From Archangiaceae bacterium (lineage in GTDB: Bacteria > Myxococcota > Myxococcia > Myxococcales > Myxococcaceae): 43,145 nucleotides of DNA. Below are positions 3,525 to 39,412 of this stretch, one piece after another. Every line of letters begins with the position of its first letter. The first letter of the stretch is position 1. A program made the position numbers and the translations under genes. The stretch lies in contig JAACJQ010000413.1 of assembly GCA_016879935.1 (NCBI GenBank), positions 1 to 43,145 of the forward strand, read 5' to 3'. The notes beneath the pieces were generated by a model that was given only the letters and a program-made list of their open reading frames with translations, had not been told where the DNA came from and did not search any database.

Positions 3525-4004
3525 TCAGGCGAGGATCTTCACCTCGTTCTTCGTGTCGGGATCGAACGGCGAGCCCTTCACGTCGACCATGGTCTTCACG
3601 AAGAAGCGCACCTTCTCTTTCGGCCACGACTTGTCCGAGAGCAGCGCGGGAATGTCCTTCTCCATGCTGATGATGAAGAAGTCCTCCTGCGTGGCGCCGC
3701 CCGAGAGCTTGTAGGGGTACTTCAGCATGTCGTCCGACCGCGACGTGTTCGGCTCGGGGAAGACGTCCTGGCCCAGCGTGACCTCTTCGACGCGGCCGTC
3801 AGGGTGCACGAACTCGGCGAGGAACGCGGCCTTCATCGAGAGCACTTCGCAGTCTTTGTCGGCGGTGACGTTGAACTTGCCCTTCACGACGGTGTCGCCG
3901 ATCGGCAGCGTGACCTGGAGCGGGTCCTGACGCTCGATGTCGGTGTGCTGCACCTTGACGCCGTGACCGCCCATGAAGTGCTTGGCTTTGTCGAAGAAAC
4001 CCAT
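3525..4004 (-). CDS. Spo0M/arrestin-like cytoplasmic protein
   Basis: Small soluble protein of 159 residues starting MGFFDKAKHFMGG. The order of features (a short amphipathic N-terminus, KVQHTDIERQDPLQVTLPIGDT, VKGKFNVTADKDCEVLSMKAAFLAEF, then beta-rich sequence to VKTMVDVKG) resembles the N-terminal arrestin-like domain of Spo0M-type sporulation control proteins; this is a pattern match by eye, not a confident family assignment. I chose the ATG at 4004 because GGAG lies 6 bases upstream; an in-frame start 48 bases further up lacks this. Convergent with der (2-base gap) and divergent from miaB. Role unknown. Confidence 0.7.
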   Translation of the reverse strand: MGFFDKAKHFMGGHGVKVQHTDIERQDPLQVTLPIGDTVVKGKFNVTADKDCEVLSMKAAFLAEFVHPDGRVEEVTLGQDVFPEPNTSRSDDMLKYPYKLSGGATQEDFFIISMEKDIPALLSDKSWPKEKVRFFVKTMVDVKGSPFDPDTKNEVKILA

Positions 4005-4072
4005 CTGTCGCTCCAGGAGACTGCGGGTGTGCTCCGAAGACCCGAGGCGCACCGGAGGAGTGCAGGAAAGCT

Positions 4073-4109
4073 GTCAGAGCGGCCCGGTTCGGCCGCCTGA
4101 GTGTCTGAC
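4073..4109. promoter_or_regulatory. Stem-loop / inverted repeat in the region between the Spo0M-like gene and miaB
   Basis: GTCAGAGCGGCC (4073-4084) is followed by the loop CGGTTC, then GGCCGC (4091-4096), a 7-base bulge, and TCTGAC (4104-4109). This gives a 6-bp perfect GC stem extended by a second 6-bp stem. It sits in the 151-bp divergent intergenic region. It could be an operator or a structured leader of miaB; there is no T-run, so it is not an ordinary terminator. Confidence 0.35.
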
Positions 4110-4155
4110 CCGCCCGGGTTGACTTGCCCACCCGACTGACGCGAGAAGCCCCCGC

Positions 4156-5532
4156 ATGAAGCGCGTTTTCATTCACACGTTCGGCTGCCAGATGAACGTC
4201 AACGACACCCTCCGAATGTCGGAGGCGCTGTCGTCGATGCAGTACTCGCCGACGCCCACGGCCGAGAACGCCGACCTCATCATCCTCAACACCTGCTCCA
4301 TTCGAGAGAAGGCCGAAGACAAGATGCTCTCGGCCCTCGGGCGCTACCGGCAGGTGAAGCTGCAGCGTGGCGCGCTCATCGGCGTCGGCGGCTGCGTCGC
4401 TCAGCAAGAGAAGAACCGCATTCTCGAGCGCGTGCCCTACGTCGACTTCGTCTTCGGGCCCGACGCGATTCAGAAGCTGCCCGAGATCATCGGCCGCGTC
4501 GAAGCCGACCGCGTGCGCGTCGTCGAGACCGCCTGGGTCGACAGCGAGTCGTACGTCTTCCCGCGCGCCGACCCGAACACCTCGCGCGGCAAGGCCACCG
4601 AGTTCATCACCGTCATGAAGGGCTGCGACAACGTCTGCTCCTTCTGCGTCGTGCCGCACACCCGCGGCCGCGAGGTGAGCCGGCCGTTCACCGAGGTGCT
4701 GCAGGAGGCCGCGAGCCTCACCACCGTCGGCGTCCGCGAAGTCACCCTCGTCGGTCAGAACGTGAACTCGTACGCCGGCGGCATCTCGTTCGCGCAGCTG
4801 CTGCTCCGCACGGCGCAGGTGCCCGGCATCGAGCGCGTGCGCTTCACCACCAGCCACCCGCAGGACCTCTCGGACGAGCTCATCGAGGCCTTCCGCATCG
4901 AGCCGAAGATCATGAGCCACTTCCACCTGCCGGTGCAGAGCGGCTCGAACCAGGTGCTCGAGCGCATGCGGCGGCACTACACGATCGCGCAGTACCTCGG
5001 TCAGCTCGAGAAGCTGCGCGCGGCTCGCCCCGACATCGCCGTCACGACCGACATCATCGTGGGCTTCCCCGGCGAGACCGACGACGACTTCGAGAAGACG
5101 TACCAGCTCGCCGAGCAGGTCCGCTACGCGGGCCAGTTCTCGTTCATCTATTCGCCGCGGCCCAAGACCGGCGCAGCGATGCGCGAAGAGGAATGGGGCT
5201 CGGTCGCCCACGACGTGAAGATCGCGCGCCTCGAGCGGCTCAACGCCATGCAGAAGAAGATCAGCGTCGAGTTCAACGCGAAGTTCGTCGGAGCGACGGT
5301 CGAGGTGCTCGTCGAGGGCTCCTCGAAGACGGACGCCACGCGCCGCTTCGGCCGCACCAGCCAGAACACCACCGTGAACTTCGACGGAGATGCTCCCATC
5401 GGAGCGCTCGTGAAGGTGCAGATTCAGTCAGCCAGCGCGGCGTCGATGTCGGGCAAGCAGCTCTCGGTCGACTCGTTGCCTGCGGTGATGATCCCCGAGG
5501 CAATGGTCGCTCCCGAGGTGTGCGTCGCCTGA
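4156..5532 (+). CDS. miaB: tRNA-2-methylthio-N6-dimethylallyladenosine synthase MiaB
   Basis: Radical-SAM methylthiotransferase that adds the 2-methylthio group to i6A37 of tRNAs reading U-initial codons. The N-terminal UPF0004 domain has the three auxiliary-cluster cysteines C11 (FGCQMN), C47 (NTCSIRE) and C80 (GGCVAQQ). The radical-SAM domain has CDNVCSFC, i.e. C157-x3-C161-x2-C164. TTDIIVGFPGET and FSFIYSPRPKTGA are typical MiaB segments, and a TRAM domain (EVLVEGSSKTD ... RTSQNTTVNF) closes the protein. The length of 458 is normal. CSIRE and FIYSPRPGT-like features favour MiaB over RimO or MtaB. Confidence 0.97.
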   Translation: MKRVFIHTFGCQMNVNDTLRMSEALSSMQYSPTPTAENADLIILNTCSIREKAEDKMLSALGRYRQVKLQRGALIGVGGCVAQQEKNRILERVPYVDFVFGPDAIQKLPEIIGRVEADRVRVVETAWVDSESYVFPRADPNTSRGKATEFITVMKGCDNVCSFCVVPHTRGREVSRPFTEVLQEAASLTTVGVREVTLVGQNVNSYAGGISFAQLLLRTAQVPGIERVRFTTSHPQDLSDELIEAFRIEPKIMSHFHLPVQSGSNQVLERMRRHYTIAQYLGQLEKLRAARPDIAVTTDIIVGFPGETDDDFEKTYQLAEQVRYAGQFSFIYSPRPKTGAAMREEEWGSVAHDVKIARLERLNAMQKKISVEFNAKFVGATVEVLVEGSSKTDATRRFGRTSQNTTVNFDGDAPIGALVKVQIQSASAASMSGKQLSVDSLPAVMIPEAMVAPEVCVA

Positions 5533-5601
5533 TAGTTTTCACCTCTGTCAGCCGTCGTGGGTCATGCTCTTGCGCATTCACGTCGTCTCGGAGGAACACA
5601 C

Positions 5602-5946
5602 ATGAACCGGAAGCTCGTCGTCTCGGCGCTCACCGCCGTCATCGCGGTCGCTGGTGCCGTCACCTCGCTTCGCGCCGACGCCGGCGGCTCGTTCAACAAG
5701 GGCAGCTGCACGTTCAACGGCAAGAAGCTGTACGGGAAGATTCAGATCGTCACGAGCTTCCCTGACGTGAAGGTTCAGGAAGTCTCGAGCTTCCCCGACG
5801 TGAAGGTGCAGAAGGTCTCGTCGTTCCCCGACTCGTGCGGCAAGTGGCAGTTCGTCACGTCGTTCCCGGACACGAAGGTGCAGTTCGTCACCTCGTTCCC
5901 CGACGTGAAGATTCAGTACGTGAACTCGTTCCCCGGCGCGAACTGA
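5602..5946 (+). CDS. Secreted 7(1) septoil-knot domain protein
   Basis: Mature protein of about 90 residues after a clear signal peptide (MNRKLVVSALTAVIAVAGAV, cleavage near SLRADA-GG). The rest is made of six near-identical strands built on a V-[TSN]-S-F-P-[DG]-x-K-[VI]-Q unit, with Phe at 53, 64, 75, 88, 99 and 110; the period is 11 except 13 across a central DSCGKW. C36 and C79 could form a disulfide. This arrangement (GSFNKGSCTFNGKKLYGKI, then SFPD strands around SCGKWQ) matches the 7(1) septoil-knot family as I know it, a very small, deeply knotted fold of unknown function. The ATG is preceded by GGAGGAACACAC. It ends 6 bases before the protease gene, so co-transcription is likely. Confidence 0.82.
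   Translation: MNRKLVVSALTAVIAVAGAVTSLRADAGGSFNKGSCTFNGKKLYGKIQIVTSFPDVKVQEVSSFPDVKVQKVSSFPDSCGKWQFVTSFPDTKVQFVTSFPDVKIQYVNSFPGAN
5743..5937 (+). repeat. Degenerate 33-bp tandem repeats encoding SFPD strands
   Basis: Six units, each carrying a (G/C)TCGTTCCC-like or AGCTTCCC core (the codons for Ser-Phe-Pro-Asp) followed by GTGAAG, repeat every 33 bases, with one 39-base spacing in the middle. The repetition is explained by the protein fold of the septoil-knot gene rather than by a mobile or CRISPR-type element. Confidence 0.85.
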
Positions 5947-5952
5947 TCGCCC

Positions 5953-8097
5953 GTGCGGCGCCTCGCGGCGGCGTTTCTCTTCTGCGCGTGCGTGACCTCG
6001 AAGCTGGAGGTGACGCCGCGCATCGTCGCGTCTTCGGATGATCCCGAACGGCTGCTCGCCGCGTTTCAGGTGGTGGCCGAGCCGTCGACTCCAGCGCGGC
6101 TCGAGAAGTCACGGGGCGGGAAGGGTGATCTTCGCGAGGTGTACCGAAAGGTCGCTCCGGCAACCGTCATCATTCGGGCTGGTACGAGCTACGGAAGTGG
6201 CGTGATCATCGACCCACGCGGGTTCGTGATCACGAATCACCACGTCATCGCGCACGCCGAGCTGGTCGACCTCAAGGCGAAGGTGCAGGTGCAGCGTGGC
6301 TCCCTCTCGCCCGAGGGCGTGATGGTGCTCGACGAGCAGCCGCTCTCGGCGTGGGTGCTGAAGAGCGACCCGCTGATCGATCTCGCGGTGTTGCAGCTCA
6401 CCGACCCTCCAGCAGGGCTGCCGAGCGTGAAGATCTCGAAGCGAGATCCCGTGCCCGGCGAACCGGTCGCTGCGCTCGGGCATGGTGCGATCGGGCTGCT
6501 CTGGGCGATCAAGGACGGCGAGGTCGCGAGCGTGGGGAAGCTGGCCACCCACCTGGCCTCGCTCGTGGGCACGGACTGTGTCGTCGAGTCTGACGGTGAA
6601 GCGTCGCCCGCTTGCCGTTCTGCCGGAGCGTCGGTCGAACTCGAGCGCAAACGCCTCGAAGAGAAGGTGCCCGGGCTCGTCGTTCAATCGAGCTGTCAGA
6701 TCTCTCCCGGTGATTCCGGTGGGCCGCTCGTGAGCCTCGGCGGTGAGCTGGTCGGCGTGAATGCGTTTCTCAAGACCGACACGCGCGCCGGTGTCGCGAC
6801 CAACTTTCACGTGCACGTCGCCGAGGTGCGCAAGTTCCTCGAGAGCGTTCCCACCGAACCGCAGCGACGAGTTCCTTCACCGTGGGAGCTGGTGCTGCCC
6901 GGCGGCGTCTGGACCGACGTCGACGGTGACGGAAAAGACGACCTCTACACGTCAGGCACCGGGCCGCGCACCGCGTTCGTCGTGAACGCTTCGCAGCAGG
7001 CGATTCCGCCGTCGTTCATGACGCGACTGAAGCCCGACGCGGTGTTGGGGCAGGTGGGCGGTCAATGGATCGGCTGGTTCGATCGTGATCGCGCCGGCAC
7101 CTTCGATCGCGTGATCCTCGGCGGCAAGGTCGGCCAGGCGCTCGAGTTCGATGGCCGAACGCCGGGACGTTTCCTGGGTGCCGCGTCCCTGCTCGATCCC
7201 GATCTGCTGACGCCATCGACGTGGCGCGCGATCGCGAACGAGCTCCAGGCGACGGTCGACTCGACCGAGCTGCCACTTCCGCCCGATCCCCTGGTGGGTG
7301 CGAAGGACTTCAGGCCGCGCGATCTCGACGCCGATGGAAAGCCAGATCTCATCACGGCGCGGCGTGGCGCCGGCTCGGTGGCGTTCATCGACGCGACCGG
7401 CGTGGGCAACCTCGAAGCCTCGACCGTTCGACTCGTCCGCCAGCTCAACCGGTGGTGGATCTTCGTCGGCGAGACCCGCGTCTACGAGTCGATCGACTTC
7501 ACGACGATCGAGCGTGCGTGGCTCCGATCGGGCGGCCTCGTTCCATCGCCTGAGCTGCGCGGAGCCGACTGGCGCGCAGTGGTGCTCTCGAGCTTCACCG
7601 GGCTGTCCCGCGAGCGCGTGGGCCAGGCCTTCGCTGCGATGAACCTGTATCGACCGGCAACTCCCCCGAAGATGTTCCCAATCTTCGGCACGACGCGCGG
7701 CAAGGTGAGCACGCTGTCGGCGCCCAATCTTCCGCTCTCGATCGTCACCGCCTCGGACTCACAGGCGACCACGATCGCGTTCGCGCTCGAGGGCAAGTCG
7801 ACCGAGACCTGGGCGCAACAGGGCTTTCCGGGCGCAGGCTTCCTCTGGTCTTCCAGCAATGGCCAGGAGTGGTTCCAGTTCGACACCGACGCCGACGGTA
7901 CGATCGACACCGTGCTGATTCGTCGCGGCGCCACCCTCGAAGGCCGCCGCATCTCGAAGGACGGCGTCATCACGGCGGCGCCGGAGCTGGAGCAGGGAAG
8001 GCCGATCAAACCAGCGCTCATGAGTGATTCCGTGAGGGCCCAACGGCTTCGAACCCTCGCGACCGAGACGTTCGCTCCGGAGCAAATCGAGCCATGA
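5953..8097 (+). CDS. Trypsin-like serine protease, likely exported lipoprotein, with Ca-loop repeats
   Basis: Predicted envelope protease of 714 residues. The N-terminus MRRLAAAFLFCAC is a short signal sequence with a candidate but non-canonical lipobox at C13. Residues about 65-300 form a chymotrypsin/HtrA-like domain with a full triad: H97 (ITNHHVI), D143 (SDPLIDLAVL) and S255 (SPGDSGGPL). No PDZ domain follows. Instead the C-terminal half contains D-x-D-x-D-G loops (DVDGDGKDD at 322-330, DLDADGKPD at 457-465, DTDADGTID further on), resembling FG-GAP/calcium-loop repeats of a beta-propeller. GTG start. The stop overlaps the next start in ATGA, so it is translationally coupled to the caspase-like gene. 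Substrate unknown; processing of the neighbouring caspase-like protein is a guess. Confidence 0.88.
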   Translation: MRRLAAAFLFCACVTSKLEVTPRIVASSDDPERLLAAFQVVAEPSTPARLEKSRGGKGDLREVYRKVAPATVIIRAGTSYGSGVIIDPRGFVITNHHVIAHAELVDLKAKVQVQRGSLSPEGVMVLDEQPLSAWVLKSDPLIDLAVLQLTDPPAGLPSVKISKRDPVPGEPVAALGHGAIGLLWAIKDGEVASVGKLATHLASLVGTDCVVESDGEASPACRSAGASVELERKRLEEKVPGLVVQSSCQISPGDSGGPLVSLGGELVGVNAFLKTDTRAGVATNFHVHVAEVRKFLESVPTEPQRRVPSPWELVLPGGVWTDVDGDGKDDLYTSGTGPRTAFVVNASQQAIPPSFMTRLKPDAVLGQVGGQWIGWFDRDRAGTFDRVILGGKVGQALEFDGRTPGRFLGAASLLDPDLLTPSTWRAIANELQATVDSTELPLPPDPLVGAKDFRPRDLDADGKPDLITARRGAGSVAFIDATGVGNLEASTVRLVRQLNRWWIFVGETRVYESIDFTTIERAWLRSGGLVPSPELRGADWRAVVLSSFTGLSRERVGQAFAAMNLYRPATPPKMFPIFGTTRGKVSTLSAPNLPLSIVTASDSQATTIAFALEGKSTETWAQQGFPGAGFLWSSSNGQEWFQFDTDADGTIDTVLIRRGATLEGRRISKDGVITAAPELEQGRPIKPALMSDSVRAQRLRTLATETFAPEQIEP

Positions 8098-9866
8098 CGT
8101 CGCTCGAGTGGTTTCGTGAACGCACGGCTGCTCCACGCGCGCTGCCCGAGTTCCCGATCTTCGACGAGGCATGGCTCTGGTACCTGCAGGGCCTGGCGAC
8201 GATCGCGCCTGCGCTCGAGACGGTCTGTCTCTACGCCGAAGACGTTCGACAAGGGCGCTGGCCCGATCGCGTCGAGCCCCAGTTCTCGGCGCAGGGCGTG
8301 TACCTCGCGCTCGCGCAGGAGATGTTGCTGAACCACGGCGATCGCCCGGGGTTCGAACGTGAAGTGACGGTTCTCTTCGATGCGCTTCGCGTCCACGTCG
8401 AGGCAGGCAAGTCGTTGCTCGATGACCCAGTGCTGAAGTCCGTGCCAGCGCTGCAGAAGTACGTCGCGCAGCTCGCAGACGATCAGCGGCTCTTCTCGGC
8501 CGATCTCGAGCGTGGGCGTCGCTATTCGATTGCGCTCCCGCCAGAGGCTTCGGTCACCAACTCGGAGCGGCGCGGGCTGCTGCTCGTGCTCGATCGCCCG
8601 GTCTCGACCCAGTTCAAGCTCTGGGCGCGCCGGGGACACAACGCGCTGTTGCTGCTGGTTCGCCAGACCGACGGCACGCTCGTGGTGTCGGCCGATCCTT
8701 CGCAGCGGCTTCGTCTCGAGTGGCTCGCCGAGAAGCTGTCGAAGCTCGACGATCACCCCTGGTACGCAGGAGAGCGCCACCTCGGAACGCTCATCGCATC
8801 GTCTCGCGATGGCACCACGCTCACGCTCGAGACGATCACGAAGGCGCTCGGCGCGAAGTCGACCCGATCACGTGCGCCTCTGTTCGCCGCCGCCGCCGCG
8901 ATCGCGCTCGTCGGCGCATTGGTCTTGATGCAGCAGCGGCCGACCGAGCCGCCCCGCCGAGGCGCCAAAGGAGAGCCACTTCCTCCGGCGAAGGTGCTCA
9001 ACCTGATGGCCGCGCAAGATGGGCCGCGCTCGTTCGAACCCTTCGCCTTGATCGCGGGTGTCTGCGGCTACGAAGGAGCGCGCACGCTCCACGCGCCGTG
9101 CCGCGACGCGCGCGCCGTTCGTGATCTGCTCACCACGAAGCTCGGCTACCGCCGCGAGAACGTGCTCTTCTTCGTCGATCGCCCCGAGCCCGGTGAACCC
9201 ACCGACGGAGAACCGACCGCCGAGAACCTCAAGCTCGCCGTCGAGCGCTTCCGCTCGCGCTTCCCCTCGGCCGACGAGACCTCGAGCTTCCTCTTCTACT
9301 ACTCAGGCCACGGCGGCTTCGAAGCCGGCGCACGGAAGGACTTCGGCGTGCTCCAACCCGCCGGCTATTTCGAGCGGCCCGATCGACCGATCTCCGAGCG
9401 CGGCTGGGACATGCAGGAGCTCGTCGACGATCTCCGAAAGGGCGTGCCCTCGAAGCACGTGATGCTGCTCCTCGACGCCTGCTACTCGGGCTGGGCGGCC
9501 GGCGCGAAGGGCGAAACCAGGCTCAGCGGCGAGCTGCGCACCTTGTGGAACGAACGCGCCGAAGTCGTGCTCTCGGCCGCCACGAAGGGCCAGCGCGCGT
9601 GGGAAGACGAGGCAGAGCCCGCCGCGTGGCAGTGGGGCGGTCACTCGGCGCTCACGGCGTTCCTCCTCGAGGGCCTCGGCCGGGCACAGGCCGACTCGAA
9701 CGGCGATCACGTCATCACCGACGAAGAGCTCGCTTCGTTTCTCACCACGAAGGTGCCGCAGGCCGTGAGACAGTCCCGGCAGGCGGAGCAGACTCCGCAG
9801 TTCTTCCGCTTCGACGAACACCTGCCTCGCTCGGGTCAGTTCCTCTTCCTGCCCACGGAGCCCTGA
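8094..9866 (+). CDS. Membrane-anchored caspase-like (C14) protease
   Basis: 590 residues. The N-terminal 260 residues are a soluble region I do not recognise (the central part looks beta-rich, around residues 143-200). A single TM helix spans about 262-279 (APLFAAAAAIALVGALVLM). The C-terminal half is a caspase/metacaspase fold: FALIAGVCGY, then FYYSGHGG with catalytic H406, then LLLDACYSG with catalytic C463, then the strand VVLSAATKGQ and a specificity-helix region. DSNGDHVITDEE (534-545) looks like an EF-hand calcium loop. Which side the catalytic domain faces is unclear, because both flanks of the TM are basic. It overlaps the protease upstream by 4 bases and is followed after 1 base by the CsgG-like gene. 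Known relatives act in bacterial cell death or signalling; the role here is inferred. Confidence 0.9.
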   Translation: MTSLEWFRERTAAPRALPEFPIFDEAWLWYLQGLATIAPALETVCLYAEDVRQGRWPDRVEPQFSAQGVYLALAQEMLLNHGDRPGFEREVTVLFDALRVHVEAGKSLLDDPVLKSVPALQKYVAQLADDQRLFSADLERGRRYSIALPPEASVTNSERRGLLLVLDRPVSTQFKLWARRGHNALLLLVRQTDGTLVVSADPSQRLRLEWLAEKLSKLDDHPWYAGERHLGTLIASSRDGTTLTLETITKALGAKSTRSRAPLFAAAAAIALVGALVLMQQRPTEPPRRGAKGEPLPPAKVLNLMAAQDGPRSFEPFALIAGVCGYEGARTLHAPCRDARAVRDLLTTKLGYRRENVLFFVDRPEPGEPTDGEPTAENLKLAVERFRSRFPSADETSSFLFYYSGHGGFEAGARKDFGVLQPAGYFERPDRPISERGWDMQELVDDLRKGVPSKHVMLLLDACYSGWAAGAKGETRLSGELRTLWNERAEVVLSAATKGQRAWEDEAEPAAWQWGGHSALTAFLLEGLGRAQADSNGDHVITDEELASFLTTKVPQAVRQSRQAEQTPQFFRFDEHLPRSGQFLFLPTEP

Positions 9867-9867
9867 C

Positions 9868-12033
9868 ATGCACGCGGTTCTTCTCTCGCTCTCCCTCGCG
9901 CTCGGCGCCGACAAGCCACCTTCGGAGAAGCCGACGCTGGCGGTCATGTACTTCGACAACCAGACCAACGACGCCAACCTCGACGTCATGCGCAAGGGTC
10001 TGGCCGACATGATGGTGACCGACCTCGTGTCGTGGGACGGCGTGACGGTCGTCGAGCGCGACAAGTTCGAAGCCGTCGTCGGCGAGCTCAAGCTGCAACG
10101 CTCGAAGTACTTCGACCAGGCGACGGTGGTGAAGATCGGCAAGTTCCTCGACGCCCGCTACATGCTCGCCGGCACGATGACGTTCAGCGGCGACAAGCTG
10201 ATCCTCGACGCGCGGCTGATCGACGCCGCCGTGAACAAGAACGTCGTCACCGCGCGCGCGAACGGGCCGAAAGACGACGTCTTCGCGGTGGAGCAGGCCC
10301 TCGTCGAGCAGGTCGCCAACGGCATCGAGCTCAAGCTGAAGAACGAAGGCGCTCGTCGAAAGGCGAAGGTGCCCTCACTCGAAGCGCTGCTCGACTACTC
10401 GAAGGCGATCGATCTCACCGATCAGGGCAAGGTCGAAGAGGCCCAGAAGGCGTTCGCCGCGCTCGTCTCGAAGTCGCCCACGTTCCTCATGGCGCGCGAG
10501 CGCAAGGAGCAGGCGGTGAAAGCCCTCGAGGAATACAACAAGCGCAAGACCGAGATCGTGAGCGCCTCTGCGATTCGCGTGGCGAAGGCGGCCGACGAGG
10601 CGCTCAAGCGGGAGAACGACTTCGCGAAGCTGTCATCGTCGGAGCAGGCGGTGTTGCTGTCGATGCGCCGGGTCAAAGGCCACTTCCTCGGGCGAGTGCT
10701 GCGTCAGTACATCTCGAACAGGGAAGGGCAGCTGCGGGTCGTGCTGGTGCCGAAGAAGCAGCAGGCCCTCGAGGGCATGAAGAACCTCTACGCCAATCAC
10801 CGAGCCATGCTCGACGAGCTCGCGCTCTACGGAAAGACGAACGGCAGCGGCCACAGCGGCACCATCACCGCCGAGCTGATGAACGACATCGCCGACTCCC
10901 GGCTCGGGCCCTTCACCATCGAGAGCGAAGAGGCGGCCTTCGATCGCACCATCAGGTTCGTCTTCCTCGGGCGGGTCGACGACGGCAAAGACGCCGAAGA
11001 CAAAGATCAGAACTACACGGTCGCGCCGACCTGGGCCGATCTGTCTCCCGGCGACGCGGCGGCGTTGTGGAAGGAGATCGACGCCCGCATCGATCAGCAG
11101 ATGAAGCGCGCGACCGCCGCCAGCGCGGCCGATCGTGATCGGACGGCGCGCGAGGCCATTCAGGCGATCGAGCGCAAGGCCGAGCTGCTCACGCGACTCC
11201 ACCGCGACGAAGACGCCGTCGGCGCGTGGCAGATGATTCTCGATGCGTTCCCCACCGACAGCCGCAACCCGTGGCGCGAGAAGGAGATCAAGAAGCTCAT
11301 CGGCGGAGAGCACGACTACGAGCGTGACCGCCGTGAGCGCTGGGAGAAGGGGCTCAAGACCTGTGAGGACATGGACCTGCGCGTCGGCAGTGGTGGCGCG
11401 GCAGACGAGCTCGTCAAACACCAGGGCCTCGTCGGCATCGACAACTTCTGGGCGACCGTCACCAAAGCGTGCCCAGCCACCGCGAAGACGCGCGGCGTGA
11501 TGGCCTACATGGCGAAGGATCTCGCGATGGACGCGGCCCGGTACGGCGACTGCGAGCTCTCGAAGAAGTACTGGCGCGTCTACATCGAGATGGATGGCTC
11601 GGTGAGCGACATGCTCGGGTACCACAAGAACTACACGCCCTGGTGCGAGTACGGCGACGTCACGAAGAACGTGTTGTGGATGCGCTTCACCATGGACGGC
11701 GGGTGGACGCCCGAGGTCGATCAGTACCTCTCGTCGGTGAAGTCGTACGACGGCAAGCAGCTCGCGATCTCGGGCCACAACAAGAACAGCTCGGTCGATC
11801 TCTCGCTGTACCTCGTGCCGGAGGGGAAGGGCTGGAAGTGCCGCGACGCCACCTGGCGCACCCGCGACGGCGATCAGGTGACGGGCACGTGCACCGCGAA
11901 GCTCACGAAGGAGGCCGCCGACAAGGGCGACTTCGACGAAGGCTCCTTCTCGGCGACCTTCACCTTCCAGCAGGACGGCCACGGCATGAAGACCGAGCTC
12001 ACCAAAGGCGACTTCCGCGTTCGCCGGCAGTGA
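9868..12033 (+). CDS. Large CsgG-like envelope protein with unknown C-terminal region
   Basis: 721 residues. A short hydrophobic N-terminus (MHAVLLSLSLALGA) suggests export. Residues about 21-155 resemble the CsgG/FlgO-type domain: LAVMYFDNQTND, MMVTDLVSWDGVTVVERDK, YMLAGTM and LILDARLIDA follow the usual pattern of a nucleotide-free Rossmann-like secretin-accessory domain. A TPR-like helical stretch (SLEALLDYSKAIDLTDQGKVEEA) and a long helical, charged middle follow. The C-terminal third ends in a beta-rich part (KQLAISGHNKNS ... GTCTAKL ... FTFQQDGHG) with several Cys. The N-terminal domain is closely paralogous to the gene at 14351. It probably belongs to the same operon as the two proteases upstream. 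It could bind or gate an envelope pore; no function is proven by sequence. Confidence 0.75.
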   Translation: MHAVLLSLSLALGADKPPSEKPTLAVMYFDNQTNDANLDVMRKGLADMMVTDLVSWDGVTVVERDKFEAVVGELKLQRSKYFDQATVVKIGKFLDARYMLAGTMTFSGDKLILDARLIDAAVNKNVVTARANGPKDDVFAVEQALVEQVANGIELKLKNEGARRKAKVPSLEALLDYSKAIDLTDQGKVEEAQKAFAALVSKSPTFLMARERKEQAVKALEEYNKRKTEIVSASAIRVAKAADEALKRENDFAKLSSSEQAVLLSMRRVKGHFLGRVLRQYISNREGQLRVVLVPKKQQALEGMKNLYANHRAMLDELALYGKTNGSGHSGTITAELMNDIADSRLGPFTIESEEAAFDRTIRFVFLGRVDDGKDAEDKDQNYTVAPTWADLSPGDAAALWKEIDARIDQQMKRATAASAADRDRTAREAIQAIERKAELLTRLHRDEDAVGAWQMILDAFPTDSRNPWREKEIKKLIGGEHDYERDRRERWEKGLKTCEDMDLRVGSGGAADELVKHQGLVGIDNFWATVTKACPATAKTRGVMAYMAKDLAMDAARYGDCELSKKYWRVYIEMDGSVSDMLGYHKNYTPWCEYGDVTKNVLWMRFTMDGGWTPEVDQYLSSVKSYDGKQLAISGHNKNSSVDLSLYLVPEGKGWKCRDATWRTRDGDQVTGTCTAKLTKEAADKGDFDEGSFSATFTFQQDGHGMKTELTKGDFRVRRQ

Positions 12034-33799: not shown

Positions 33800-34981
33800 A
33801 TGGCCGTGCGGTTCGGCATCGACGTCTGGGTGAAGCAGAAGTTCCGTGCGCTGAAGGGGCTTCGAGTCGGAGCCATCGTCAACCCCACCAGCGTCGACGC
33901 CTCGTTCCGGCACCTGGTCGATCTGCTGCACGACGCTCCGAACCTGACCCTCTCGGCGCTCTTCGGCCCCGAGCACGGCATTCGTGGCGAGGCGCAGTAC
34001 ATGGTGGCAGTCGGAGACGTCGCGCGTGATCGCCGCACCGGCGTGCCCGTGTACTCGCTCTACGGCAGCACCTTCGAGTCGCTCTCTCCGAAGCAGGCGT
34101 GGCTCGAGAACCTCGACGCGCTCGTCTTCGACATTCAGGACGTCGGCGCGCGCTACTACACCTACATCTACACGATGGCGCTCGCGATGAAGGCGGCCGC
34201 GAAGGCGAAGCTCCCGTTCTTCGTGCTCGATCGCCCGAACCCCATCGGCCTCGACGTCGTGCAGGGCAATCTGGTCGGCAAGAAGTTCCGCTCGTTCGTC
34301 GGGCTCTACGAGCTGCCCAACCGGCACGGCATGACGGCCGGAGAGATCGCGTCGTTGCTCAACACGACCGAACGGTTCGGCTGCGACCTGCACGTGGTGC
34401 CCTGCGAAGGGCTGAAGCGCTCGACGACCTGGGCGCAGACCGGCCGCGACTTCATCTCGCCGTCGCCCAACATGCCCAGCCCTGCGACCGCGCTCGTGTA
34501 CCCGGGCATGTGTCTGGGCGAGGGCACCAACGTCAGCGAAGGCCGCGGCACCTGCAGGCCGTTCGAGCAGTTCGGCGCGCCGTGGCTCAAGTCGCACGAG
34601 GTCGCGGAGTCATTGAACGCGCTCCACCTGCCTGGCGTCGTGTTCCGCCCATGCTCTTTCACGCCCACCTTCGACAAGTTCCAGGGCGTCTCGTGCGAAG
34701 GCGCGTTCCTTCACGTCACCGATCGCAGAGCGTTCGACCCCTTCGTCACAGGCATCGCCGTGTTCCAGACCTGCCGCACGCTCGGAGGCAAGGACTTCGC
34801 CTGGCGCGCCGACGCCTACGAGTTCGTCGACGACATTCCCGCGTTCGATCTGCTCTGCGGCACCTCGAAAGTGCGCGGGGGGATTGAAGCTGGCTGGCCA
34901 CTGGAGAGAATCGTGGCGGGCTTCGCGTCGGAGCTCCGGCCGTTCCTGGCCGTTCGCGAGCAGCACCTGCTGTACGGTTGA
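33800..34981 (+). CDS. DUF1343 / NamZ-type exo-beta-N-acetylmuramidase
   Basis: 393 residues of the DUF1343 family, characterised members of which (NamZ) remove N-acetylmuramic acid from peptidoglycan fragments. Family segments are intact: LRVGAIVNPTSVD, SALFGPEHGIRGEAQ (with the acidic residue expected at the active site), VFDIQDVGARYYTYIYTM, FFVLDRPNPIGLDVVQG, NRHGMTAGEIA, SPNMPSPATALVYPG and EGTNVSEGRGT. There is no signal peptide at the chosen ATG (MAVRFGIDVWVKQ), so it would be cytoplasmic and act in wall recycling rather than outside. One base after the TPR gene, hence co-translated. Confidence 0.92.
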   Translation: MAVRFGIDVWVKQKFRALKGLRVGAIVNPTSVDASFRHLVDLLHDAPNLTLSALFGPEHGIRGEAQYMVAVGDVARDRRTGVPVYSLYGSTFESLSPKQAWLENLDALVFDIQDVGARYYTYIYTMALAMKAAAKAKLPFFVLDRPNPIGLDVVQGNLVGKKFRSFVGLYELPNRHGMTAGEIASLLNTTERFGCDLHVVPCEGLKRSTTWAQTGRDFISPSPNMPSPATALVYPGMCLGEGTNVSEGRGTCRPFEQFGAPWLKSHEVAESLNALHLPGVVFRPCSFTPTFDKFQGVSCEGAFLHVTDRRAFDPFVTGIAVFQTCRTLGGKDFAWRADAYEFVDDIPAFDLLCGTSKVRGGIEAGWPLERIVAGFASELRPFLAVREQHLLYG

Positions 34982-36263: not shown

Positions 36264-37514
36264 ATGAAGCTCACCCGACGCGAACTCGGCCTCGCGGCCC
36301 TCGGAGCTGCAACCACCGCGCGCGCCCAGATGACCCGGCCCGCAGCCTCGCGGTTGATCGTCTTCTTCACCCCGAACGGCACCGTGCCAGCGCGCTGGCG
36401 CCCGACCGGCACCGAGACGGCGTTCTCGTTCGGAGCGGGCACCGTCCTCGAGCCGCTCACTGCGCTTCGCGACAAGCTCGTGGTGATCGACGAGCTCGAC
36501 TTCTTCGGTGCCGACAACCACGAAGGCGGCATGGCCGCGATGCTGACCGGCACCGAGGGCTCGAGCGGCGAGTCGCGGGGCATGTCGCTCGATCAGTTCG
36601 TGGCCGCGCGGCTGAACGCGGCGACGCGCTTCCGTTCGATCGAGCTCGGCGTCGCCACCAGCGCGTGGGGCTCCAGCCGCCAGACCCGCATGTCGTATTC
36701 GGGCCCCGGAGCCCTCGTGAGCCCCGACGACGATCCCTCCGCGGTCGCACGGCGGGTGTTCAACGTGGGGGCAGGCTCCGGCTCCAATCGGCTCGACCGC
36801 AAGAAGGCCATTCTGCGGCTCAATCGCGGGCAGCTCGATCGCATGCGGGCGATCGCTCCCGAGAACGAACACGCCAAACTCGACGCCCACAAGAGCGCCC
36901 TCGACACCCTCGAGGCTCGGCTGGTGGCGCCAACGGGCATGTGCGGCGTTCCAGCGATTCCGATGGGCCTGAGGCCGCAGCAGAACGACGCGTTTCCGCA
37001 AGTCGGCGCGCTCCAGATGGATCTGCTCGTCGCCGCCCTCGCGTGCGACGCCACGAAGGTGATCTCGCTCCAGTGGAGCCACACGGTCAGCCCGATCGTG
37101 CCGACGTGGTTGTCCCTGAACGAGGCGCACCACGAGCTCTCACACATGGCCGACTCCAACGCGGCTGGAGTCGATCGGTTCATCGCCGCCGAGCGGTGGT
37201 TCGCGCAGCAGTTCGCGACGCTGGTGAGCAAGCTCGAAGCGACGCCCGATCCCAATGGTGGTGGGTCGCTGTTCGACACGAGCCTGGTGCTCTGGTGCAA
37301 GGAGATGGGCGACTCGCGTGCCCACGTCTGCCGCAACGTTCCGATGGTGTTGACGGGCAAGGCGAACGGAGCGCTTCGCCTGGGCCGCTACCTGCGCGTC
37401 GCGGGCGAGCCACACCAGAAGCTGCTCGTCAGCCTCAGTCACCTGATGGGCCTCGACAACGAGACCTTCGGTGATCCCACGAAGAGCCGTGGCGCGCTCG
37501 CGGGGGTCGCATGA
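36264..37514 (+). CDS. DUF1552 domain-containing exported protein
   Basis: 416 residues of the DUF1552 family, which is nearly always paired with DUF1592 proteins in Planctomycetes and Myxococcota. The N-terminus MKLTRRELGLAALGAATTARA has a twin-arginine-type signal. Typical segments are RLIVFFTPNGTVPARW, VVIDELDFFGADNHEGGMAAMLTG, SLDQFVAARL, DLLVAALACDATKVISLQWSHTV, AHHELSH and VLWCKEMGDSRAHVCRNVP. Biochemical activity is not established for the family; several conserved His/Asp suggest a metal-dependent (alkaline-phosphatase/sulfatase-like fold) enzyme. It overlaps the next gene in ATGA. Confidence 0.9.
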   Translation: MKLTRRELGLAALGAATTARAQMTRPAASRLIVFFTPNGTVPARWRPTGTETAFSFGAGTVLEPLTALRDKLVVIDELDFFGADNHEGGMAAMLTGTEGSSGESRGMSLDQFVAARLNAATRFRSIELGVATSAWGSSRQTRMSYSGPGALVSPDDDPSAVARRVFNVGAGSGSNRLDRKKAILRLNRGQLDRMRAIAPENEHAKLDAHKSALDTLEARLVAPTGMCGVPAIPMGLRPQQNDAFPQVGALQMDLLVAALACDATKVISLQWSHTVSPIVPTWLSLNEAHHELSHMADSNAAGVDRFIAAERWFAQQFATLVSKLEATPDPNGGGSLFDTSLVLWCKEMGDSRAHVCRNVPMVLTGKANGALRLGRYLRVAGEPHQKLLVSLSHLMGLDNETFGDPTKSRGALAGVA

Positions 37515-39412
37515 AGCGGCTCCTGCTCACGCTGGCGCTGGCCGCCTGTGAGGCGAAGATCGACGCTCCGGCGCCGCCGATGCCAGTCGACGACATGAAG
37601 CCAGTCGACTGCGCCGTGGCGCCGCTTCCCGGTCGACGACTTCGCAGACTCAGTCGGCCCGAGCTGGTTCGCAGCACGAACGAGCTGGCCGCAGCCTCGG
37701 TCGTCTCGGTGCAGGCCCTCGCGTCAGACCTCGTGGTGGACGGCTTCGAGACGTCGGCCGAGAAGCTGAGCGTCGGCGTGCTGCTCGCCGATCAGCTCCA
37801 GACGATGGCGGAGTCCGTGGGCGCAGCCATCGGTCAGGCCCCCACGCGGTTCGGAGGCTGCAACATGCCGACGGATGCCTGTCGCGACGCCTTCATCCGT
37901 GCCCTCGGTTCAGCGGCCTTCCGAAGGCCCGTCGATGACACGCAGCTCGCCGAATACCGCTCGATCTACGAATTGGCGCGATCCGACGGACACGGCCCTG
38001 CTGCGGCGCTCGTGGCCGAGGCGATGTTGTCGTCACCCTTCTTCCTCTACCGCCCGGAATTGGGCTCACCAGCAGGGGAGGGCCAGTGGGCACTCTCCGA
38101 CGACGAGCTCGCCAGTCAGCTCTCGTACTTCCTCACCGGCGGCCCACCCGACGCCCAGCTTCGCGCCGCGGCTGACGCGAAGATGCTCCACGAACCGGCG
38201 CAGCTCGAAGCCCACGCCACACGCCTGTTGCAGGGCCATGACGGCCTCGGCGGATTCGTCGACGCGTGGCTCGAGCTCGACCGCCTCGACACGCTGCCGA
38301 AAGAGCCCCCGGTCTTCACGCCGGCGATTCGTGCGGCCATGCGCGAAGAGGCCCGTCGGTACTTTGCGCAGGTGCTCGAGAGCGGCGGTTCCTGGCAAAC
38401 GCTGCTGACGGCCCGGTACGGCATCGTCGATCGGCAGCTCGCCGCGTTCTACGGGCAGCCGGCACCGACGGGGGTGACGTTCGAGAAGGTCGATTGGCCA
38501 GAAGGGCGCCGAACGGGGTTGCTGACCCTGGGCGCGCTTCTCGCGACGCACGGCAAGCCGTCGGGCTCGTCACCAGTTCATCGAGGCGCCGTCATTCGCG
38601 CCCGCATGCTCTGCCAACCGCCGCCACCTCCGCCGCCCAACGTGAACGCCACGCCGCCTCCTGAACAGGCTGGGCGCACGACCCGAGATCGTTTCGTCGC
38701 GCACTCGGCGAACCCGAGCTGCGCGGGGTGCCATTCGATGCTCGATCCACTCGGGTTCGCGCTCGAGCACTTCGACGGCATCGGGCAGGAGCGAGCGCTC
38801 GACAACGGGCTGGCGATCGACGCCACCGGGAAGCTCCTGGCGACGACACCAGCCGACGCCACGTTCGACGGCGCGAGGTCCTTGTCCGAAGCGATCGCGA
38901 ACAGCGAAGAAGGTCGCTCGTGTTTCGTGACGCAGGTGCTCCGGTTCGGCATGGGCATGTCGGGCGCGCGAGATCCATTCACGTGCGTGGGCTCGAGCGT
39001 CGCGAACTCCATGACGCCTACGACGCCACTGCGAGACGTGGTGCTGGCGCTGGTGAAGGCCGATGGGTTTCGGCTGCGCGCCGGAGCGACGAACGGCGTT
39101 CAACCGATGCTGCCTCCGCCCGTGCTCACCATGCCCATGCCGCCGACGCCGCAGCCCATGAACGGCCTCCAGGTGACGCGAACCACGCAGTCGTCGTGGC
39201 CGACGGGCTATTGCGATGACGTGACCGTGAAGAACGTCGGCACCGTGGCGACTGATTGGGCCGTCGAGTTGGCCGTCGAAGGCACCATCAACAACGCCTG
39301 GAACACGCAGTTCACCGCATCAGGCTCGAACGTTCGTTTCGCCGGCGTTGCCTGGAACTCGCGACTCGAACCCATGGCGAGCGCGGCGTTCGGGTTCTGC
39401 GCCATGAAGTGA
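37511..39412 (+). CDS. DUF1592 cytochrome-c-like protein with C-terminal CBM2
   Basis: 633 residues, apparently a lipoprotein (MKRLLLTLALAAC-E). The order of modules fits DUF1587/1595, DUF1592, DUF1588 and DUF1585: RRLSRPELVRSTNEL, FRRPVDDTQLAEY with SSPFFLYRPELG, then GGRR-type THGKPSGSSPVHRG, SCAGCHSMLDPLGFALEHFDGIG (C404-x2-C407-H408 haem-c motif) and the TQVLRFGMGM end. After a Pro-rich linker (about 532-552), residues 553-633 are a family-2 carbohydrate-binding module: SSWPTGYCDDVTVKNVGT, WAVELAVEG, NAWN, VAWNSRLEPMASAAFGFC. The three binding tryptophans (W563, W597, W615) and the C568-C630 disulfide are kept. Partner of the DUF1552 gene through a 4-base overlap. A cellulose- or chitin-targeted redox or hydrolytic role is inferred. 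Confidence 0.88.
   Translation: MKRLLLTLALAACEAKIDAPAPPMPVDDMKPVDCAVAPLPGRRLRRLSRPELVRSTNELAAASVVSVQALASDLVVDGFETSAEKLSVGVLLADQLQTMAESVGAAIGQAPTRFGGCNMPTDACRDAFIRALGSAAFRRPVDDTQLAEYRSIYELARSDGHGPAAALVAEAMLSSPFFLYRPELGSPAGEGQWALSDDELASQLSYFLTGGPPDAQLRAAADAKMLHEPAQLEAHATRLLQGHDGLGGFVDAWLELDRLDTLPKEPPVFTPAIRAAMREEARRYFAQVLESGGSWQTLLTARYGIVDRQLAAFYGQPAPTGVTFEKVDWPEGRRTGLLTLGALLATHGKPSGSSPVHRGAVIRARMLCQPPPPPPPNVNATPPPEQAGRTTRDRFVAHSANPSCAGCHSMLDPLGFALEHFDGIGQERALDNGLAIDATGKLLATTPADATFDGARSLSEAIANSEEGRSCFVTQVLRFGMGMSGARDPFTCVGSSVANSMTPTTPLRDVVLALVKADGFRLRAGATNGVQPMLPPPVLTMPMPPTPQPMNGLQVTRTTQSSWPTGYCDDVTVKNVGTVATDWAVELAVEGTINNAWNTQFTASGSNVRFAGVAWNSRLEPMASAAFGFCAMK

What the first reader, a model, noticed from the sequence alone, without database searches (positions are those of the whole stretch)
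37511..39412. DUF1592 haem-motif protein fused to an apparently functional CBM2
DUF1552/DUF1592 pairs are functionally unexplained. Here the DUF1592 partner ends in a cellulose-binding-type CBM2 with all three binding tryptophans (spacing 34 and 18) and the disulfide. This ties the pair to polysaccharide binding, perhaps oxidative attack.
Basis: partly seen in the sequence, partly recalled or inferred. Interest (0 to 1): 0.66.

Follow-up and report, generated by a model that had tools for sequence, protein, structure and literature searches.

The report
Haem protein with cellulose-type binding domain
A myxobacterial surface haem protein of poorly understood function really does end in a cellulose/chitin-type binding domain, and it belongs to a widespread two-gene module whose relatives are needed by Cellvibrio to grow on insoluble cellulose, which makes the unexplained partner gene (DUF1552) directly testable.

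Summary
Window 37511-39412 encodes a 633-aa putative lipoprotein with DUF1587-1595-1592-1588(CAGCH)-weak 1585, then a CBM2 at 555-631. The DUF1552 gene sits upstream with a 4-nt overlap. It is not an assembly join: the DUF1552/X132-CBM2 cassette recurs in 28 loci, and the C-terminal CBM2 proteins form one clade (31 of 32 tips, support 0.96). W563, W597 and W615 match the binding tryptophans of Cellulomonas Cex, and the modelled domain superposes on CBM2a (Z 11.3, 1.4 A over 82). The CBM2 is a short variant lacking the last segment; its Cys pair (C568/C630) is not the canonical CBM2 disulfide.

"Functionally unexplained" is partly out of date. The DUF block is CAZy X132, present in Cbp2D, which Cellvibrio japonicus needs on insoluble cellulose. 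In Cellvibrio mixtus I found Cbp2E-like, Cbp2D-like and DUF1552 genes side by side. DUF1552 folds like sulfatases/alkaline phosphatases.

An LPMO-donor role is unlikely: this genome has no AA10, and 8 of 15 carriers in the family lack it. In the same 8 genomes this is the only CBM2.

Best reading: a surface-tethered redox module acting on cellulose- or chitin-like polymer, new in variant rather than in kind. Substrate and chemistry are unproven.

The parts
36264..37514 (+). DUF1552 (HXXSHH, PF07586) protein, 416 aa, N-terminus MKLTRRELGLAALGAA (Tat-like); stop overlaps the next start by 4 nt (ATGA)
   Evidence: Pfam 218 bits; AF2 model pLDDT 91 with alkaline phosphatase/sulfatase-superfamily fold, Z 16.9 over about 260 residues; adjacent to X132 in all 28 C-terminal CBM2 loci
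37511..39412 (+). X132-CBM2 lipoprotein, 633 aa
37538..37549 (+). lipobox LAAC (residues 10-13): putative lipid-anchored Cys13
   Evidence: sequence itself; similar LSAC motifs near the N-terminus of homologues
37643..39070 (+). X132 block: DUF1587-DUF1595-DUF1592-DUF1588-(weak)DUF1585, residues 45-520
   Evidence: Pfam; the same order follows the X183 domain in a Cellvibrio mixtus Cbp2D-like protein
38720..38734 (+). haem c attachment motif CAGCH (C404-H408) in DUF1588
   Evidence: no other His/Met column is universally conserved across 135 X132 sequences
39071..39166 (+). Pro/Met-rich linker, disordered in the model (530-549 pLDDT < 50)
39167..39409 (+). C-terminal short CBM2 (residues 553-633) with W563, W597, W615 and Cys pair C568/C630
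   Evidence: Pfam 49 bits; superposes on 6qfs/3ndy/1exg, Z 11.3/11.4/9.4; conservation

Best explanation
The gene pair makes a cell-surface, polysaccharide-tethered redox module. Shown: a 633-aa protein carries one CxxCH haem-attachment motif in an X132 block and a C-terminal short CBM2 with the cellulose/chitin-binding tryptophans, and its gene overlaps by 4 nt that of a DUF1552 protein predicted to have a sulfatase/alkaline-phosphatase fold. Inferred from sequence: it is lipid-anchored through Cys13, the haem is covalently bound, and DUF1552 is exported by Tat. Inferred from families and context: CBM2 holds the X132 haem against insoluble beta-1,4-glycan (cellulose or chitin), where X132 with DUF1552 performs or supports a redox reaction on the polymer or its ends. 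Electrons pass to or from cytochromes or quinone, since relatives carry these as fused or neighbouring domains. It works in the class of Cellvibrio Cbp2D but not as an obligate LPMO electron donor. Inferred with least support: the X132 haem is catalytic rather than a simple electron carrier, because no distal His or Met is conserved.
For: CBM2 with three binding Trp and CBM2a-like fold. Conserved DUF1552/X132-CBM2 cassette in 28 loci with no third gene shared by all. C-terminal CBM2 clade 31/32 tips, support 0.96, with N-terminal CBM2 fusions lying outside it, so CBM2 seems recruited at least twice. In eight family genomes this is the only CBM2, including single-contig G052. X132 equals the Cbp2D C-terminal block, and a C. 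mixtus locus has Cbp2E-like, Cbp2D-like and DUF1552 genes in a row, with a 7b21 (cbp2D X183) hit of E 1e-18. cbp2D/E mutants grow poorly on insoluble cellulose, worse than the lpmo10B mutant (PMC12542752). Redox partners in relatives: GSDH + cytochrome c + CBM26 fusion, YceI + X183, cytochrome c and b/b6 genes beside a Sphingobium pair. AA10 is absent here and in 8/15 carriers, Fisher p 0.34. Conserved Tyr180, Tyr314, Arg138, Arg358, Glu183 but only H408 as a universally conserved His.
Against: No binding, haem loading or activity measurement was found for this protein or any Myxococcota relative. The genome has only one GH9 and one GH5 match at family level and no AA10, so it is not an evident cellulose degrader. 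The short CBM2 with a moved disulfide may bind something else. X183 domains of Teredinibacter did not feed an LPMO (PMC10916295).
Confidence: 0.5

Rival explanations
1. X132 is an electron relay of a sugar or oligosaccharide dehydrogenase system: sugar oxidation happens elsewhere (PQQ/GSDH or DUF1552) and X132 passes electrons to cytochromes; CBM2 only places it near the food.
For: Pseudoalteromonas fusion CBM26-GSDH-cyt c-X132; Sphingobium pair beside cyt c and cyt b/b6; PSCyt genes mirror GH genes in Verrucomicrobia (PMC5615132).
Against: No GSDH-like domain in this protein and no third gene shared by all 28 loci; no conserved distal haem ligand as expected of a carrier.
Confidence: 0.2
2. 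It is an electron donor for lytic polysaccharide monooxygenases, as proposed for Cbp2D.
For: Cbp2D X183 reduces AA10 and activates cellulose cleavage (PMC8981238); 7 of 15 carriers have a strong AA10.
Against: No AA10 in this genome (95% complete) nor in G004, G009, G010 (only a weak partial match), G046, G050, G052, G058; association p 0.34. P0001 has no X183. Teredinibacter X183s failed to donate (PMC10916295).
Confidence: 0.08
3. The CBM2 is an adhesion or targeting device to a cell-surface or prey polymer (chitin, peptidoglycan, exopolysaccharide) and the DUF1592/DUF1552 pair acts on a substrate unrelated to polysaccharide.
For: Eleven other DUF1592 genes in this genome lack CBM2; few cellulases; a NamZ muramidase gene lies upstream at 33800-34981.
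Against: Different CBMs (CBM2 twice, CBM26; LamG, CBM6, PA14 in PMC5615132) are repeatedly attached to the same block, and Cbp2D mutants have a cellulose phenotype.
Confidence: 0.2
4. Assembly error or chance fusion.
For: Draft genome of 445 contigs.
Against: Same fusion and neighbour at 72% identity in another assembly and in 28 loci.
Confidence: 0.01

Closest known systems
Cbp2D of Cellvibrio japonicus (CBM2-X158/YceI-FN3-X183-X132)
   Same: Shares the X132 block (DUF1587/1595/1592/1588 with CxxCH) and a CBM2; the Cellvibrio mixtus homologue also has DUF1552 next to it.
   Different: Here the CBM2 is C-terminal, short and has another Cys pair; no YceI, FN3 or X183; putative lipid anchor; DUF1552 lies upstream; no Cbp2E-like CBM2 gene (this is the only CBM2 of the genome) and no AA10.
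X132 proteins TERTU_3803 / TERTU_2913 of Teredinibacter turnerae (PMC10916295)
   Same: X132 with CxxCH; TERTU_3803 also carries CBMs.
   Different: They carry X122, X183 and (TERTU_3803) PF08450-X173 domains, all missing here.
PSCyt3/PSD proteins of Planctomycetes and Verrucomicrobia (PMC5615132)
   Same: Same family of PSD/PSCyt3 domains; some carry CBMs; next to conserved unknown genes.
   Different: CBMs listed there are LamG_3, Bac_rhamnosid_N, NPCBM, CBM6 and PA14, not CBM2.
CBM2a of Cellulomonas fimi Cex (1exg, 6qfs)
   Same: Fold (Z 11.3, rmsd 1.4 over 82 for 6qfs) and the three binding Trp.
   Different: About 20 fewer C-terminal residues; Cys pair C568/C630 in place of the N/C-terminal disulfide.
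Alkaline phosphatase/sulfatase superfamily (for DUF1552)
   Same: Predicted fold, Z about 16-17 over 240-270 residues.
   Different: 8-15% identity; no significant sequence match in the PDB and weak profile match to sulfatases; catalytic residues not shown to be kept.

Membership tests
CBM2 (PF00553) | Score over Pfam gathering cut-off | tested here: met
   49.4 bits against 24
CBM2 (PF00553) | Three binding aromatics of type-A CBM2 at the right positions | tested here: met
   W563/W597/W615 align with the three Trp of 1exg; surface exposure in the model not computed (no coordinates available)
CBM2 (PF00553) | Canonical disulfide near N- and C-terminus and full-length domain | tested here: not met
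   Ends 3 residues after C630; profile match 3-82 of 101; Cys pair at other places. It is a short CBM2 variant
CBM2 (PF00553) | Binding to crystalline cellulose or chitin | not testable with these tools
   needs protein
X132 / PSCyt3 module | DUF1587-1595-1592-1588 order with CxxCH | tested here: met
   DUF1585 only below cut-off
X132 / PSCyt3 module | Covalently bound haem | not testable with these tools
   motif only
Cbp2D type | CBM2 plus X132 in one polypeptide | tested here: met
Cbp2D type | X158/YceI and X183 domains | tested here: not met
   no YceI or cytochrome c domain found in P0001
DUF1552/DUF1592 pair | DUF1552 gene adjacent | tested here: met
   36264-37514, 4-nt overlap; conserved
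LPMO electron-donor system | AA10 LPMO in the same genome | tested here: not met
   no PF03067 match in G000, genome 95% complete
Alkaline phosphatase/sulfatase superfamily (DUF1552) | Fold | tested here: met
   predicted model only
Alkaline phosphatase/sulfatase superfamily (DUF1552) | Metal ligands and nucleophile | tested here: inconclusive
   profile alignment too weak to place residues; invariant H86, H290, H294 seen

The most novel reading that the evidence does not exclude
X132 plus DUF1552 is a new, LPMO-independent redox enzyme system that attacks insoluble polysaccharide directly: X132 provides a catalytic haem without distal His/Met ligand, DUF1552 is a repurposed sulfatase-fold subunit, and interchangeable CBMs (CBM2, CBM26 and others) choose the polymer.
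Probability: 0.22. Interest if true: 0.88.

Novelty: new variant of a known kind. Interest (0 to 1): 0.55.

Why it matters
The pair is abundant (12 DUF1592 and 14 DUF1552 matches in this genome alone), yet the few papers found that mention it call its function unknown. The evidence joins three separate literatures: Planctomycete/Verrucomicrobial PSCyt3 genes, CAZy X132, and Cbp2D of Cellvibrio, whose role in growth on insoluble cellulose has been shown genetically. It shows that DUF1552 is a near-constant companion of X132 that the Cbp2D papers read here do not discuss. If true, deleting the DUF1552 gene beside cbp2D in a genetically tractable Cellvibrio would test its role. A haem-based, LPMO-independent attack on cellulose would be a new way to open crystalline polysaccharide.

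Tried and rejected
Sorangium as source genus: guessed from genome size, dropped when the same-genus genome G004 proved to be Myxococcaceae MAG Prado148 (L120 and G004:C569 share contig length and gene coordinates). N-terminal haem domain of the long homologues as X183: not supported; its profile did not hit 7b21 or the Teredinibacter domains. LPMO donor: see rivals. E. coli YceI as a bridge to X158 structures: too divergent. Viral contigs: no relatives. Fold of X132 alone: not tested, because the whole-protein search returned only CBM2-like matches and no further structure job was allowed. Idea that DUF1552 His86 replaces the sulfatase nucleophile: suggested by the LTG-like motif, but the profile alignment did not place it.

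Full report
OBSERVATION. The ORF at 37511-39412 (+) is real and complete: 633 aa, start MKRLLLTLALAAC with a lipobox LAAC. Pfam gives DUF1587 45-105, DUF1595 124-183, DUF1592 195-315, DUF1588 334-429, DUF1585 451-520 (below cut-off) and CBM_2 555-631 with 49.4 bits. The single CxxCH (C404-H408) is in DUF1588. Upstream, 36264-37514, lies DUF1552 (218 bits) with a Tat-like N-terminus; the two genes share ATGA. The tryptophans are W563, W597 and W615 (34 and 18 apart), plus W583.

IS IT AN ARTEFACT? No. A 72% identical protein with the same layout exists in a second genome of the genus (G004; the same contig as L120, Myxococcaceae bacterium Prado148). In the family searched, 15 of 59 genomes carry X132 with C-terminal CBM2. 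Among 28 loci compared, only the X132-CBM2 gene and DUF1552 are shared by all; in the part of the output that was printed, other clusters reach few loci or are shadow frames. In a tree of 135 X132 domains the C-terminal CBM2 proteins form one clade, 31 of 32 tips, support 0.96.

THE CBM2. It aligns with the Cellulomonas Cex CBM2a (1exg) with all three binding Trp. The AlphaFold2 model (pLDDT 89.8) superposes on 6qfs with Z 11.3 and rmsd 1.4 over 82 residues, and on 3ndy with Z 11.4 and 1.6 over 83. In 29 C-terminal CBM2s, W563 and W597 are invariant and position 615 is aromatic in 27. The group lacks the last part of the domain and has a Cys pair (C568, C630) in 29 of 29. Canonical CBM2s on the same module elsewhere have neither feature. 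Chitin-binding CBM2-like domains (2rtt, 6bt9) match about as well as cellulose-binding ones, so the ligand cannot be told.

IDENTITY OF THE HAEM BLOCK. Branch et al. 2021 (PMC8981238) describe C. japonicus Cbp2D as CBM2-X158-FN3-X183-DUF1587/X132. A named genome scan gave a Cellvibrio mixtus genome, and a search of it a locus with three genes in a row: CBM2-YceI (367 aa, Cbp2E-like); 1121 aa CBM2-YceI-X183-DUF1587-1595-1592-1588; and DUF1552. Its X183 region hits 7b21 (cbp2D) at 1.3e-18 and its YceI region hits 2x34 (X158) at 1.4e-21. So X132 is the DUF1587/1595/1592/1588(/1585) block, and Cbp2D-type loci also carry DUF1552. The C. japonicus gene itself was not in hand. A wheat-straw metasecretome had already listed a Cellvibrio CBM2 'DUF1592 domain-containing protein' among proteins unique to the biotin-labelled (biomass-bound) fraction (PMC6004670).

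OTHER FUSIONS. The same block with DUF1552 beside it carries PKD-CBM26x3-GSDH-cytochrome c in Pseudoalteromonas, with similar giant proteins of about 2140-2370 aa, seen only as X132 plus CxxCH motifs, in Colwellia, Catenovulum and Cellvibrio. Thiothrix-type bacteria have two or three N-terminal CBM2. A Sphingobium plasmid has DUF1592-DUF1552-cytochrome c-cytochrome b/b6. PMC5615132 reports LamG, CBM6, PA14 and others in Verrucomicrobia. Repeated and independent pairing with glycan-binding domains is the best evidence for a polysaccharide role.

PARTNER. DUF1552 is predicted with high confidence (pLDDT 91) and matches sulfatases, phosphodiesterases and alkaline phosphatases (Z up to 16.9 over about 260 residues), though sequence profiles see no such relation in the PDB. 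Invariant residues include H86, H290 and H294. Whether they form a metal site is unknown.

LPMO TEST. AA10 is absent from this genome and strong AA10 matches are absent from 8 of 15 carriers; 7/15 carriers against 13/44 non-carriers have one, p 0.34. GH9 is associated (7/15 against 5/44, p 0.007), but genera are not independent data points. In eight carriers the X132 CBM2 is the only CBM2. An obligate LPMO-donor role is thus unlikely; this agrees with Cbp2D/E mutants being worse than lpmo10B mutants (PMC12542752) and with Teredinibacter X183s not donating (PMC10916295).

HAEM. Over 135 X132 sequences (chosen to contain CxxCH) no other His exceeds 78% and no Met exceeds 74%, while Y180, Y314, R138, R358, E183 and E419 exceed 95%. 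This hints at a haem without a standard sixth ligand; it is inference only.

CONCLUSION. A new variant (short C-terminal CBM2 on a minimal lipoprotein X132, DUF1552 upstream, in Myxococcota) of a known kind (CBM-linked X132 redox proteins). Most likely role: redox work on cellulose- or chitin-like polymer at the cell surface (0.5). Substrate and chemistry remain open.

Noticed in passing
L167 (Cellvibrio mixtus) 4730-10483; L166, L168 likewise: Cbp2E-like, Cbp2D-like and DUF1552 genes in one row; the Cbp2D papers read here do not discuss DUF1552 as a partner.
   Followed up: yes
L162 (Cellvibrio sp. 79) 3751-10176: A GH5 cellulase fused to CBM2 and YceI lies next to a CBM2-YceI-dihaem-X132 protein and DUF1552.
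   Followed up: partly
L059 3910-11734 and L062-L073: Giant proteins; the Pseudoalteromonas one is PKD-CBM26x3-GSDH-fn3-cytochrome c-X132 followed by DUF1552, suggesting a starch counterpart; similar-sized ones in Colwellia, Catenovulum, Cellvibrio.
   Followed up: partly
L060 5773-9919 (Sphingobium plasmid pMSHV): DUF1592-DUF1552-cytochrome c-cytochrome b/b6 gene row after a TonB receptor: a possible electron path.
   Followed up: no
L077, L079, L080, L095, L097, L099: Two or three N-terminal CBM2 plus up to four CxxCH motifs on X132 proteins of Thiothrix, Thiobius, Methylococcus and relatives.
   Followed up: partly
L120 15507-17279; L135 8878-10518: X132 paralogues with DUF1552 next to them but without CxxCH, so some family members may work without haem.
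   Followed up: no
L017-L029 (long homologues), N-terminal region: An extra N-terminal CxxCH domain (CPDDxEFFRTxxWEPV...C.xCH) with no match to X183 or any solved structure.
   Followed up: partly
G000:C27 (L174 4937-7324 and 11031-14206): The only GH9 found in this genome, with a lipobox-like start, lies about 4 kb from another DUF1592/DUF1552 pair.
   Followed up: partly
window 5953-12033 (+): Three tightly packed genes: trypsin-like protease with FG-GAP, caspase-like protein, CsgG/LpoB-like protein.
   Followed up: no
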